64,000 nucleotides of DNA from assembly GCA_019057475.1 (NCBI GenBank), contig DXJO01000039.1:1-64000 (forward strand), read 5' to 3'. Numbering within the stretch: position 1 is the first letter of the stretch; the number at the start of each line of letters is the position of its first letter. The translations under genes were made by a program, and so were the position numbers. This DNA comes from Candidatus Thorarchaeota archaeon. GTDB lineage: Archaea > Asgardarchaeota > Thorarchaeia > Thorarchaeales > Thorarchaeaceae. This document shows, piece after piece, positions 30,819-35,442 of this stretch. The notes beneath the pieces are model-generated. The model saw nothing but the letters and a program-made list of their open reading frames with translations. It had not been told where the DNA came from and did not search any database.

Positions 30819-31430
30819 TTAGCGCGTTTCCCTTAATGCCACATTCTCTTTCACGTTTGTTTCTACAAGTTCAAGTTTAATCTTGAAGAGAGACTCCAGA
30901 TATCCCCTAATGAACGGAGCAGGATAGAACGGACCTCCAATCACAATGAGGTCATCGTGGGAACTGAATTCACCCCATCCAGAATTTTGCAGCAATTGGA
31001 AAGCTAGCTCACGAGTTGCCGTGTCTCTGACATCCTTTCCGTGGAACAAGCGAATTACATCAGCAACAGGCGCTTGGCTTCCAGCGGTTTCACCCAGTAC
31101 GTACTGTTCCACAGGCGTGAGCTTTGAGAAGAACAGCGAAGACAGCGTTTCTGACTCAAGCACACTCCGAACAGCGTTAACGTAAAGCCCACGCTCAGCC
31201 CACTTGTGTACAGTGAAGTCTAGATACCATCGAACAGCATCTTCGATTAGTTGTGCTCTCGATCGGCCGACTCTGTCCTGAACCAACTTATCCATCAGTT
31301 TGACAATCGAGCTGCTCATTGTAACACTGATGATTTTCTTTTTATCAGATTTCTCAGATCCTTTTGGCACGCCAGGTCGTCTCCCTACTACACTCCCGCA
31401 AGTGGCTGAATTGAACTTGCCAGCCTTCAA
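30819..31430 (-). CDS. Ribbon-helix-helix (CopG-like) transcription regulator
   Basis: 203 residues. Residues about 31-72 form an RHH domain (KKKIISVTMSSSIVKLMDKL, then GRSRAQLIEDAVRWYLDF), which dimerises and inserts a beta-ribbon in the major groove. The C-terminal 130 residues are a helical and alpha/beta region of unknown role, perhaps a sensor. The long frame begins at TTG 31430; a GTG near 31370 would still keep the ribbon strand. TATATTCG on the minus strand lies near 31443. Its target is unknown; the adjacent AbrB-like gene is a candidate. Confidence 0.7.
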   Translation of the reverse strand: MKAGKFNSATCGSVVGRRPGVPKGSEKSDKKKIISVTMSSSIVKLMDKLVQDRVGRSRAQLIEDAVRWYLDFTVHKWAERGLYVNAVRSVLESETLSSLFFSKLTPVEQYVLGETAGSQAPVADVIRLFHGKDVRDTATRELAFQLLQNSGWGEFSSHDDLIVIGGPFYPAPFIRGYLESLFKIKLELVETNVKENVALRETR

Positions 31431-31862: not shown

Positions 31863-31881
31863 TCCACTGACGCATACTATT

Positions 31882-34005
31882 TTATTGTCCAAACTTGTCA
31901 CCCCTTGAGGGAAGTCCGGATTGGCCCTGGTATGCGGACAGGGCACGGTTAGCGTAAGTCATTGCAGCATTGTGATGTCTGTTCACTCTCTCACCACATT
32001 CATCGCATCTCAGAGTGTCCCAGTCACCTGTATTTATTAGCCTGCCTCCACAGTTCACATGAGTACCCACTCTTGGTGCAACACCCTTTGTTTCCACTGG
32101 GACTCCTTTCACGTCAAGTACTTCCAGTGCGTACTCCATTATGATCTCTAGCCTCTTTGGCATGTGAGTTATCGCTTTAGCCAGGGCTCCTCTTGTGCCT
32201 CTTGTGCTCAGTTTCGATATGTTCATCTCATAGCCTATGACCTCTGGTCTGCACTCGTAGACGACCTCTGCCAGCAGTCGCCCACAGGCTCTGTCAAGCT
32301 CAGCCTTCAGTCTTGCAACACGTGCATGAACCATCGCAATCTCCTTCTTCAGTTTGTAGGACATCCGCTTCTTGTTCAGGCGTTCATACTTTGCCCTCTT
32401 TCTTGTGAGTCGTGGTAGAACAACATCCCTCAGTCGGACTATCCTCTTTGATATCTGCTCAACACGACTCATGTCACCAAGTGGAGCTCTCTCTGTTGAC
32501 CCGATCACAAACACATCCTTCGATGGACGATTCGGGTCTACTCCAACAGCCTCTACCGACCTCTTCTTGATCTTGATGCGGTTCAAGAATTTTGTGCTGG
32601 GCTTGAAGTCCGGAATCTCAAGGACGATATCGAATTTCACTTTCTTCGTTGGCCCCTCTGGCGGCAGTACACGTGCTGACCTGACTCTTGCTCCTTGCAA
32701 GATGTGGCTCCTGATTGTCTTGCTCGCTATCACTCTCATTGTGATCTTTCTTCTTCGACTGGGTCTGACTGTGAACTCTGTGTAACCCATGTTCCGAAAG
32801 TCGTCAGTGATCTGGGTCGAGTTGCCACGGGCTATCACATACTTCGGACCCATGTGTAGCTCCAACGGGAGTTCGTTGCGTGTTGTGCTGCTGAAGGGGA
32901 CTGATATGCAGTTGCTGACTGTGAGATGCCTGATGAACCCTCTCTCATCTGTGACTAAGGAGGCTGCAATGATCTCTCTGAGAGCTGACAGGTAGTTATG
33001 TCGTCCTCCAAGTCTACTTCTGACAACTTCAGACAATGACTTGAGGAATCGCCTTGAGGGCAGGATATGCTCAAGAAGGTCTTCGAACTCATCGACTCTG
33101 TCGGTCAGGTCCTTGACCTTTCTCAGGAACACCTCTGCTCTCTGGCTGTCCTTACCATCACGTTTCATCGACTCGATGTTGTTCTCAACACGTCTCAGTA
33201 GGCGTCTAGCTTCTCTCACAAAGTCGTTCTTCCTCACTCTGAATGTCGAATGGGGCGGACTCACATGAGCCAGCCTGTCCATCCCTCTGACAAGAGTGTC
33301 AGTCTTTCCTACGAACACCAACGCATGCATTCTCTGCAACTTGTTCAATACTCTCTCGTCACCATTGAACAGTCGCCTGTGTGCCTCTACCTGTTCATTC
33401 ACACGATCAATCCTGTAGGATAGCTTGTCATCTATCTTGTTGCGGAGACCTCGAATTGTAGCATTCATCCATCTCTCCTCTACGTTGAACATCTTTGCCA
33501 TGGTCAGTGAAAGGTATCTGGGCACCTGTCCGAAGAACGCTATCGAGGGAATACACACTTCAAAATCACCTTGTAGCAGGTCTCTCAACTTCTTGAGCTT
33601 CTCCACTAGGCTCATCTGTACCTCGCATGCATTCCCTAGAGAGTAGAAGTACGAGTGAGCAAGGTTCTCCTCGATCCCTGTGTGCGCTCGCAATTTGGCT
33701 GCTCCGCTAATACCACCACTCGATATCGCTCCTGAGCGAAAGAGCTGGAATGCAATTGGTGCAAGACACTTTGCTTGGGACATTGCGCGACGACAGAATT
33801 TAGAAACAGTGTCAGCAGCCTCGTACTCCAGTGACTTCGGAGTTCCTTCAGGTCGTCGCCAGCTCGTTGTATAGGTGCGGATCTCAGGTTGTTGTTGAGG
33901 TTCTGTTGTCTTGGTGTTGTTGTTTGGGGTCTGGGGTTGTGATGGTGTGCGGTTGGTGGTTGCGGCGGGGGGCAGCTGCGGGTGGGTAGTTCTCACATCG
34001 GTCAT
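31882..34005 (-). CDS. tnpB: Large TnpB-like RNA-guided nuclease with altered RuvC-III, 707 aa
   Basis: The C-terminal third is the TnpB nuclease: RuvC-I AVGVDPNRPSKDVFVIG (Asp near 507), a coiled insertion, and RuvC-II PEVIGYEMNISKL (Glu). RuvC-III reads CDECGERVNRHHNAAMTYA, where the usual catalytic Asp of DRDxNAA is His. The zinc ribbon keeps CDEC, but its first pair is HVNC rather than CxxC. The N-terminus opens with a Pro/Thr/Gln-rich tract of 45 residues. Typical TnpB is about 400 residues, so this is nearly twice as long, in the range of Fanzor-like proteins. The neighbour is a serine recombinase of the IS607 type, so the element is an IS607 relative. The protein may be a nuclease-dead regulator or a very divergent active one; sequence alone cannot say. 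Confidence 0.8.
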   Translation of the reverse strand: MTDVRTTHPQLPPAATTNRTPSQPQTPNNNTKTTEPQQQPEIRTYTTSWRRPEGTPKSLEYEAADTVSKFCRRAMSQAKCLAPIAFQLFRSGAISSGGISGAAKLRAHTGIEENLAHSYFYSLGNACEVQMSLVEKLKKLRDLLQGDFEVCIPSIAFFGQVPRYLSLTMAKMFNVEERWMNATIRGLRNKIDDKLSYRIDRVNEQVEAHRRLFNGDERVLNKLQRMHALVFVGKTDTLVRGMDRLAHVSPPHSTFRVRKNDFVREARRLLRRVENNIESMKRDGKDSQRAEVFLRKVKDLTDRVDEFEDLLEHILPSRRFLKSLSEVVRSRLGGRHNYLSALREIIAASLVTDERGFIRHLTVSNCISVPFSSTTRNELPLELHMGPKYVIARGNSTQITDDFRNMGYTEFTVRPSRRRKITMRVIASKTIRSHILQGARVRSARVLPPEGPTKKVKFDIVLEIPDFKPSTKFLNRIKIKKRSVEAVGVDPNRPSKDVFVIGSTERAPLGDMSRVEQISKRIVRLRDVVLPRLTRKRAKYERLNKKRMSYKLKKEIAMVHARVARLKAELDRACGRLLAEVVYECRPEVIGYEMNISKLSTRGTRGALAKAITHMPKRLEIIMEYALEVLDVKGVPVETKGVAPRVGTHVNCGGRLINTGDWDTLRCDECGERVNRHHNAAMTYANRALSAYQGQSGLPSRGDKFGQ

Positions 34006-34150
34006 TTCGTGTCACCGCCAAGTGTTTCTTGCTGTTGACATCTGTTAGAACTTCTGAATTATATGGACCGAACTAGTAGTGGTGTTTTTCAGAGAGTGTA
34101 TGGCAGACACCATTATATACGCACTAGGGGTAATATCCTCCACTATCAGA

Positions 34151-34340
34151 GGTTCAGGTTGCACGAATTTGACCGCTCGATTGGCGCAGATTGCATTCTA
34201 GTGACCAGTCGTCTGCACAGGTTGCAGCCCTGTGACCGATTGCATATCTCAAGTTGCATCAAAATGACCGTTCGTGTCTGTGAGGTTGCAATAGAATTAC
34301 CGTTTGGGTCTCGAATGTTGACTCCAAATGACCACTCTGT
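34151..34340. repeat. Six phased ~32-bp imperfect direct repeats (iteron-like array)
   Basis: Each unit has TTGCA, six free bases, then TGACCG and a [ACT]T[CT]G-like end. TTG begins at 34159, 34191, 34222, 34254, 34286 and 34318, giving steps of 32, 31, 32, 32 and 32 bases. The TTG-to-TGACC offset is eleven in all six. Copy 5 has TTACC and copy 6 has TTGAC for the first block. About 32 bases equals three DNA turns, so proteins would bind one face. The array ends about 30 bases before ATG 34373, overlapping its probable promoter region. Confidence 0.75.
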
Positions 34341-34372
34341 AGGACAATAAACTCAATAAAACGCATCAAGGA

Positions 34373-34615
34373 ATGGTGAACTCATTGGTCTCAAGGGACT
34401 CTCTTCCTCAGGAGCGACTCACTCGTGAGTCTGTGGCAAAGGTCATCCACAACAGAGGACATATGGTGTTGCTCATGGACTATCTCAAGGCATATCCTGA
34501 CGAGCTACTCAGAGGAGTACTTGTTGCAGGGTCAATCGGTTCCGGTAAGACTGAGAGGGCTAAGAGCATTGTAATGGCAGCTCTTGACTCTATAGTGGTT
34601 GGAGGCATGTCTTGA
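34373..34615 (+). CDS. Small P-loop NTPase-like ORF, 80 aa
   Basis: ATG 34373 lies just downstream of the repeat array, with CAATAAAC near 34345 as a possible TATA box. Residues about 50-66 read VLVAGSIGSGKTERAKSIV, a Walker A motif. The protein ends soon after, lacking Walker B and the rest of an ATPase core. It could be the start of a broken HerA/FtsK-like ATPase or a genuine miniature. The next ORF overlaps it by four bases. Confidence 0.45.
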   Translation: MVNSLVSRDSLPQERLTRESVAKVIHNRGHMVLLMDYLKAYPDELLRGVLVAGSIGSGKTERAKSIVMAALDSIVVGGMS

Positions 34616-34794
34616 GTGAGCCAGTTCGAGGGGAACGTGAGTCAATGCAGTTATCCATACGTCTAGTCAGGAGGTTATGTAAGGCAGTGGTAGACTCTGT
34701 GTTGTGGGAGACCCTAATAGAGAGTGACCCCAAGGTCAATCAGTTTGAGGAGGTTCTTAGAAGATGTATCAGGATTGAGGGGGATGCTTGGTGA
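34612..34794 (+). CDS. Small ORF overlapping the P-loop ORF, 60 aa
   Basis: It starts at TTG 34612, overlapping the TGA of the P-loop ORF. The product is helical and charged (LSIRLVRRLCKAVVDSVLWE), and the last 26 bases overlap tnpA antisense. No family recognised. Possibly another piece of a decayed larger gene. Confidence 0.3.
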   Translation: MSEPVRGERESMQLSIRLVRRLCKAVVDSVLWETLIESDPKVNQFEEVLRRCIRIEGDAW

Positions 34795-35338
34795 GCGACT
34801 TTCCCCGTCGTGATCTATGAAGTCGTCCTGCAAAAGATGTGACAAGTGCAATGATATCTTCTGCAAGTGTGTGATCTCTGTCTGCTGAGGGAAATACGCG
34901 CTCGACTCTGACACCAATATGACTGAGAAGTTCTTTCAGAGTATGAGTCCCGAAACGTGCAAGGCGGTCATCATAGGTAATGAGCATTCTGTCAACAGCG
35001 CCAGAAGCACATAGTCGCAGAAGCCTGGGCAGACCTTGATGTCTGTCATTGAGACCAGATGCGATATCAAAATACTTCTTGACAATGAGATAGTCATTCT
35101 CAAGAGCATAGTCTTCCAGAGTGTTCAACTGGTGACGAAGATCATCCTTCTGTTTATGTGCTGAAACTCTTGCATGGAGAGCAACAGTCTTTGGAGTGTT
35201 TGACCTTGTAGAGGTCTCATATCTTCGATGACTCCTAGTGTTCTGAGAGTAGAGATGTATTTGCCTTTCTTTTCCCATCATCTGAGTGTTGATGTTGAGA
35301 CCAAGATTTCTTGCCATGATACCAATTCTTACTAACAT
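34769..35338 (-). CDS. tnpA: IS607-family serine recombinase (TnpA)
   Basis: About 189 residues. A degenerate MerR-like helix-turn-helix opens the protein (MLVRIGIMARNLGLNINTQ, ending SHRRYE). The resolvase domain follows: ARVSAHKQKDDLRHQLNTLE carries the nucleophilic serine of RVS, and DRLARFGTHTLKELLSHIGV matches the YKDRLARFG region. It ends in the family tail LVTSFAGRLHRSRRGKS. IS607 recombinases move a circular intermediate with little target preference. ATG 35338 gives a normal length; the frame from 35392 adds 18 unlikely residues. Confidence 0.8.
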   Translation of the reverse strand: MLVRIGIMARNLGLNINTQMMGKERQIHLYSQNTRSHRRYETSTRSNTPKTVALHARVSAHKQKDDLRHQLNTLEDYALENDYLIVKKYFDIASGLNDRHQGLPRLLRLCASGAVDRMLITYDDRLARFGTHTLKELLSHIGVRVERVFPSADRDHTLAEDIIALVTSFAGRLHRSRRGKSLTKHPPQS

Positions 35339-35442
35339 GACAAGATTGCAACAGGGTTTTCCCTTCTGAATGCAACGGTGAAATTGCATCACAGAAGAAG
35401 ATGGAAAAAAGGTGAGGGAGGGGTAGTATACCCCTCAGTTGA

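What the first reader, a model, noticed from the sequence alone, without database searches (positions are those of the whole stretch)
34151..34340. Helically phased six-copy repeat array between IS607 tnpA and tnpB
Six units of about 32 bases with fixed TTGCA-N6-TGACCG blocks and otherwise free sequence. The step equals three helical turns, so a protein oligomer would see six sites on one face. The array precedes a P-loop ORF and may be its operator, a recombinase accessory site, or an origin-like iteron set. Not CRISPR, because the conserved part is shorter than the variable part.
Basis: partly seen in the sequence, partly recalled or inferred. Interest (0 to 1): 0.72.

Follow-up and report, generated by a model that had tools for sequence, protein, structure and literature searches.

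The report
Six-site array upstream of archaeal ATPase
Between two genes of a jumping DNA element in an Asgard archaeon lies a row of exactly six evenly spaced DNA signals, also found in two related genomes just in front of the same motor-protein gene; it is most likely the docking and control region of that gene (broken in this genome) rather than part of the jumping machinery.

Summary
The array is real: six units, TTGCA-N6-TGACCG, at 34159-34334, steps 32,31,32,32,32. A motif-free six-unit scan scores it 36.4 bits; no dinucleotide shuffle exceeds 26.
The window is from a Thorarchaeota (Asgard) genome. Four congeners show the empty site, defining a 3,505-bp IS607-type insertion (31873-35377) holding tnpA, tnpB, the array and a P-loop ORF. 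That ORF is the remnant of an internally deleted HerA-type ATPase gene; an intact 802-aa relative carries two C-terminal winged-helix domains.
The two other loci of this ATPase carry a six-unit array at 31-33 bp steps, directly before the ATPase start; neither has tnpA nearby. Across 18 units TTGC and TGNCC are largely kept, while one base is invariant within each array but differs between arrays (A, T, C). Filler sequence is not conserved, so binding by a cognate protein, not recent duplication, best explains uniformity.
Best reading: a promoter-proximal six-site platform bound by the element's own protein, most likely the ATPase through its winged helices, for autoregulation and/or hexamer loading (as TraB at clt in Streptomyces). 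No binding was tested. A tnpA accessory site, CRISPR, an iteron origin and the RHH protein are disfavoured.

The parts
31873..35377 (.). IS607-type insertion, 3,505 bp, containing tnpB, array, ATPase remnant and tnpA
   Evidence: Empty site in four congeners (L102-L105); cleanest in L104 (...CCACTGACG|GTGAAACTGAG...), insertion at G|G, no target duplication beyond a 3-nt ACG ambiguity
31882..34005 (-). TnpB-like protein, 707 aa, Pro/Thr-rich N-terminal leader
   Evidence: Pfam Cas12f1-like_TNB below cut-off; Asgard homologues; RuvC I D and RuvC II E present, RuvC III D replaced by H in most of the aligned set
34006..34150 (.). non-coding stretch between array and tnpB start, partly conserved with G191 contigs C582 and C526
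   Evidence: alignment
34159..34190 (+). array unit 1 (TTGCACGAATTTGACCG...)
34191..34221 (+). array unit 2 (TTGCATTCTAGTGACCA...), 31 bp
34222..34253 (+). array unit 3 (TTGCAGCCCTGTGACCG...)
34254..34285 (+). array unit 4 (TTGCATCAAAATGACCG...)
34286..34317 (+). array unit 5 (TTGCAATAGAATTACCG...)
34318..34334 (+). array unit 6, blocks only (TTGACTCCAAATGACCA), the weakest and nearest the ATPase
34344..34352 (+). A/T-rich ACAATAAAC, putative TATA box of the ATPase gene
   Evidence: 14-16 nt after the start of the last TGNCC block in all three loci; TATA assignment is inferred
34373..34615 (+). 5' remnant of HerA-type ATPase gene (P-loop GSIGSGKT)
   Evidence: 58% identity to residues 13-67 of the 802-aa ATPase P0001; 67% to G191 C582
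34600..34795 (+). 3' remnant of the ATPase gene, in another frame; about 670 codons between the remnants are deleted
   Evidence: matches P0001 residues 738-797, E=0.003, frame open to its stop
34769..35338 (-). IS607 TnpA serine recombinase (start re-assigned to MLVRIG..., inside the element)
   Evidence: NF033518 125.3 bits, Pfam Resolvase; start as in homologues L006, L013, L009, L017

Best explanation
The array is the promoter-proximal DNA-binding platform of a mobile HerA-type ATPase gene. Six direct 32-bp units put two short recognition blocks each (TTGC and TGNCC, 11-12 bp apart, one helical turn) on the same face of the helix, ending shortly before the gene's TATA-like box and about 40-55 bp before its start codon. 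An element-encoded protein binds all six sites cooperatively. The likeliest binder is the ATPase itself, whose intact relative has two C-terminal winged-helix domains; related solved HerA proteins are multi-chain rings. Binding would regulate the ATPase promoter and/or load the ring on its own element. Shown: the array, its conservation in spacing and position at three loci, an array-specific base, the ATPase architecture, the insertion boundaries. Inferred: protein binding, the identity of the binder, promoter function, loading. In this window the ATPase is deleted, so the array is probably a recent orphan.
For: Homologous six-unit arrays lie before the ATPase gene in G214 (Ca. Thorarchaeota YT5_051; steps 32,32,32,32,33) and G191 C582 (32,31,31,32,32), at 32.7 and 35.9 bits against shuffle maxima of 26. 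Over 18 units T at block-2 position 0 is 18/18, G at +1 17/18 and C at +3 17/18, while +2 is A six times, T six times and C six times, once per array: a specificity switch common to all six sites. Identity outside the blocks is only 0.33-0.46, so units are not recent copies. A two-unit search of 228 Asgard genomes finds only the window and G214 arrays plus one stray match: a single-locus binder, hence probably element-encoded. The ATPase is the only gene seen at all three loci; tnpA is absent from the held G214 and G191 loci. Two wHTH regions and a HerA core in P0001. The ATPase core is 56% identical between G214 and G191, the wHTH part 25%, in line with changed specificity, if contigs C582 and C67 belong to one gene.
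Against: No binding data. The window's array has the highest block identity of the three although its ATPase lacks the wHTH region, and G191's ATPase gene is also broken; either the losses are recent or another protein uses the array. Only three loci. G214's contig ends 7 bp before its first unit, so six is a minimum there. The link of G191 C582 to C67 (wHTH half) is inferred from shared insertion ends. The TATA-like boxes are weak. Two TTGCA-containing motifs lie within 35 bp of the tnpA end of the element, so a tnpA role for the first block is not fully excluded.
Confidence: 0.6

Rival explanations
1. Operator only: a separate regulator (for example the TnpB-like protein or a small host wHTH factor) binds the six sites to control the ATPase and/or tnpB promoters; the ATPase does not touch it.
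For: Position between divergent genes and next to a TATA-like box; tnpB 5' region partly conserved in two array loci; array preserved although the ATPase is deleted in the window.
Against: No other array found in the genome, unlike a host regulator's regulon; the solo tnpB homologue on G191 C526 shows no evident array upstream (by eye); an array-specific base implies a binder that changes with the element.
Confidence: 0.25
2. IS607 TnpA accessory or end-binding sites: TnpA dimers bind the array during transposition.
For: Array lies inside an IS607 element; IS607-family ends carry helically phased direct motifs (PMC6188088); two TTGCA-containing motifs at the tnpA end.
Against: Array is internal, more than 1 kb from the tnpA end, period 32 not about 10 bp; two array loci have no tnpA nearby; tnpA upstream regions of five Asgard IS607 relatives hold no such array, and the loci of TnpB relatives gave no comparable 31/32-bp array in the motif-free scan.
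Confidence: 0.07
3. Iterons of a replication origin or a centromere-like site of an integrated plasmid.
For: Tandem phased direct repeats next to an ATPase gene are typical of iterons and par sites (general knowledge).
Against: No replication or partition gene identified near any of the three arrays; the element is a 3.5-kb IS607-type insertion.
Confidence: 0.06
4. Guide or CRISPR-like array, or structured RNA, for the TnpB-like nuclease.
For: Repeat-variable-repeat look beside a Cas12/TnpB relative.
Against: Conserved part is short and split, filler inside the block varies, number and spacing are kept but filler is not; no Rfam match; folding no better than shuffles on either strand.
Confidence: 0.02

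Closest known systems
Streptomyces TraB and its clt locus (8-bp TRS repeats)
   Same: A hexameric DNA-translocating ATPase assembles on short repeats carried by its own mobile element (PMC4170104; PMC12857230); here too a translocase-type ATPase with C-terminal winged helices lies beside repeats.
   Different: TraB is of the FtsK clade; this ATPase is HerA-like. The sites here are split 17-bp signals at strict 32-bp steps, six in number, upstream of the gene; binding and DNA transfer are untested.
HerA/DUF87 ATPases, including anti-phage HerA and archaeal CedD
   Same: Walker A, Walker B region and core of the 802-aa relative match HerA families.
   Different: Far below NCBIfam equivalog cut-offs (about 50 vs 600-850 bits), two added winged helices, and an upstream six-unit array.
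IS607-family elements (TnpA serine recombinase, TnpB)
   Same: TnpA above cut-off, GG target, no clear target duplication.
   Different: About 760 bp with the ATPase remnant and array between tnpA and tnpB; IS607 TnpA motifs are 9-bp, closely phased and terminal (PMC6188088).

Membership tests
IS607 family (the enclosing element) | TnpA serine recombinase of IS607 type | tested here: met
   NF033518 125.3 bits vs cut-off 110
IS607 family (the enclosing element) | insertion at GG without target duplication | tested here: met
   empty-site comparison with congeners; 3-nt ACG ambiguity remains
IS607 family (the enclosing element) | tnpA directly followed by tnpB | tested here: not met
   34006-34768 lies between them with array and ATPase remnant; so a composite variant
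HerA-type ATPase (gene the array precedes) | P-loop, Walker B and HerA core | tested here: met
   G214 copy P0001; in the window only the P-loop remnant and a C-terminal piece remain
HerA-type ATPase (gene the array precedes) | hexameric ring | not testable with these tools
   inferred from related solved HerA entries with many chains; AlphaFold model of P0001 failed (pLDDT 36)
TraB/clt type conjugation locus | FtsK-clade translocase | tested here: not met
   closest families are HerA/DUF87
TraB/clt type conjugation locus | translocase binds its repeats | not testable with these tools
   wHTH regions present; binding unknown
Archaeal operator/promoter region | sites at a fixed distance from a TATA-like box and start codon | tested here: inconclusive
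   A/T-rich box 14-16 nt and start codon 40-54 nt after the last block in three loci, read by eye; box sequence weak, no transcript data
CRISPR array | contiguous near-identical repeats | tested here: not met
   split 11-base signal with variable N6 inside
Iteron origin | adjacent replication initiator gene | tested here: not met
   none in the element (Pfam); in the G191 and G214 loci none recognised among the listed ORFs, only some of which were run against Pfam
IS607 TnpA binding sites | located at element ends, closely phased short motifs | tested here: not met
   array internal, period 32; PMC6188088

The most novel reading that the evidence does not exclude
A ring-shaped HerA translocase is loaded onto double-stranded DNA by wrapping a dedicated six-site array, one 32-bp site per subunit, in a relaxase-free archaeal DNA transfer, segregation or integration system that rides on TnpB elements in Asgard archaea. 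Sites and winged helices switch specificity together between elements.
Probability: 0.15. Interest if true: 0.82.

Novelty: new variant of a known kind. Interest (0 to 1): 0.52.

Why it matters
It links a precise DNA signal to an uncharacterised family of mobile ATPases in Asgard archaea, where few element-encoded control or loading sites are known (own knowledge). Six sites recur at three loci (at least six in one) beside an ATPase of a ring-forming class, with one base that changes in all six sites at once. That makes a simple prediction: swap the base and the protein should lose its own array and gain another. It also shows an IS607-type insertion that carries, besides tnpA and tnpB, a gene with its own regulatory region.

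Tried and rejected
TRF does not report the array. The first genome-contig scan with TnpB found nothing; with the ATPase it found only the G214 record. The viral-contig scan with the ATPase found no relative; a strict three-unit pattern found nothing and a looser one eight coding or simple repeats judged unrelated by eye. Plasmid and phage searches gave only distant DUF87-type relatives. My G191-style pattern had a gap range that could not match G191's own array, so its empty result means nothing. A motif-free scan of the fetched loci under 12 kb, including other HerA genes and Asgard TnpB loci, ranked these three loci among the top; other high scores were other periods or weaker. AlphaFold on the single ATPase sequence was useless. 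No second contig in G214 shares the contig end, so the far side of its array stays unseen. The HTH-HNH gene beside the G191 array was considered as the binder: a relative in G212 also lies next to rpsB (by eye), so it seems to be a local host gene fused to the tnpB leader (inference).

Full report
Observation. The six-unit array is real and lies where stated. TTGCA-N6-TGACCG occurs at 34159, 34191, 34222, 34254, 34286 and 34318 with 0, 1, 0, 0, 1 and 3 mismatches. A motif-free scan for any six units at 31-33 bp steps gives 36.4 bits here; the next best place in the 64-kb window has 25.4. The maxima are 25.3 in 24 shuffles of the window and 25.0 in 200 shuffles of the element. No seventh unit scores on either side. 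No second array of this kind was found in the genome. The step is not a multiple of three and an ORF read through the array has no Pfam match, so it is not a coding repeat.

Setting. The window is from a Thorarchaeota (Asgard) genome: a relative in the same family is record JAEOTX010000150.1, Ca. Thorarchaeota YT5_051. Four congeners show the site without the insertion. The cleanest empty site reads ...CCACTGACG|GTGAAACTGAG..., which defines a 3,505-bp insertion, 31873-35377, at G|G, with no target duplication beyond a 3-nt ambiguity. This fits IS607, and the TnpA passes the IS607 cut-off. tnpA and tnpB are separated by the array and the P-loop ORF. The RHH gene at 30819-31430 is a host gene kept in three congeners, not part of the element.

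The P-loop ORF. Its relatives in the phylum are at two loci: an 802-aa HerA-type ATPase in G214, and a broken copy in G191 C582. The window keeps residues 13-67 and 738-797 of this protein, in two frames, with about 670 codons lost between them; both pieces are still open, which suggests a recent deletion. The intact protein has a HerA/DUF87 core and two winged-helix regions near 512-578 and 681-721. The G191 copy carries a duplicated P-loop stretch and an internal deletion, and ends at a contig break; a C-terminal half with winged helices lies on contig C67, joined to it by inference.

Conservation. In G214 six units TTGC-N7-TGTCC stand 32, 32, 32, 32, 33 bp apart before the ATPase; in G191 six TGCCG-type blocks stand 32, 31, 31, 32, 32 bp apart. 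Both exceed all shuffles. Aligned on the second block, 18 units keep T (18/18), G (17/18) and C (17/18) at positions 0, +1 and +3, and T at -11 (17/18). Position +2 is A in all six window units, T in all six of G214 and C in all six of G191. Identity outside the blocks is 0.33-0.46 (G191 has some further conserved positions), so the likeness is not from recent duplication. I read this as selection by one binder per element whose preference has drifted. A search of 228 Asgard genomes for two phased units found only the window and G214 arrays and one stray match; its pattern does not fit the G191 variant.

Linkage. The array goes with the ATPase gene: it is upstream at the three loci of this family whose upstream sequence is held. 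tnpA is not encoded in the held G191 and G214 loci, and tnpA upstream regions of five Asgard IS607 relatives show no array. A solo tnpB homologue on G191 C526 shares the partly conserved 5' region but shows no evident array (by eye). In all three array loci an A/T-rich box follows the last block by 14-16 nt and the start codon by 40-54 nt, the order expected of upstream sites, TATA box and a short or absent leader (inference).

Mechanism. The ATPase is the only gene seen at all three loci, carries predicted DNA-binding domains, and belongs to a class whose solved members are deposited as multi-chain assemblies. I therefore favour self-recognition: autoregulation, ring loading, or both. TraB on clt repeats is the closest working analogue (PMC4170104; PMC12857230), but membership in that family is not met. 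The weak point is that the window array is the best preserved although its ATPase is gone. Other rivals are listed with their evidence. CRISPR or structured RNA is excluded as far as sequence, Rfam and folding go.

Noticed in passing
window 31882-34005 and homologues L005-L032: This Asgard TnpB family has H instead of the third RuvC aspartate (HxNAA for DxNAA) in most aligned members (exceptions such as L031 have Q), while the first D and, in most, the E are kept; activity or death of the nuclease is open.
   Followed up: partly
L040 726-2255 (G191 C582), L082 (G200 C259): Multi-HTH plus HNH proteins, multicopy in Thorarchaeota; in G200 one directly follows a separate HerA/VirB4-like ATPase gene, and one HTH stretch resembles the CRISPR-repeat-binding protein Cbp1.
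   Followed up: partly
L040/L041 and L042/L078 contig ends: G191 contigs C582 and C78 share one ~55-bp end sequence, C526 and C67 another ~24-bp one; apparently one insertion sequence has hit both the ATPase gene and the tnpB gene.
   Followed up: no
window 35346-35377: Two GTTGCA motifs (on the minus strand) lie within 35 bp of the tnpA-side end of the element; possibly TnpA end motifs.
   Followed up: partly
L039 16321-17106 and L078 8202-8771: Genes downstream of the ATPase: DUF3800 in G214 and a 189-aa protein without NCBIfam or PADLOC match that by eye resembles a PD-(D/E)XK-like nuclease in G191; possible partners of a HerA-type defence pair.
   Followed up: no
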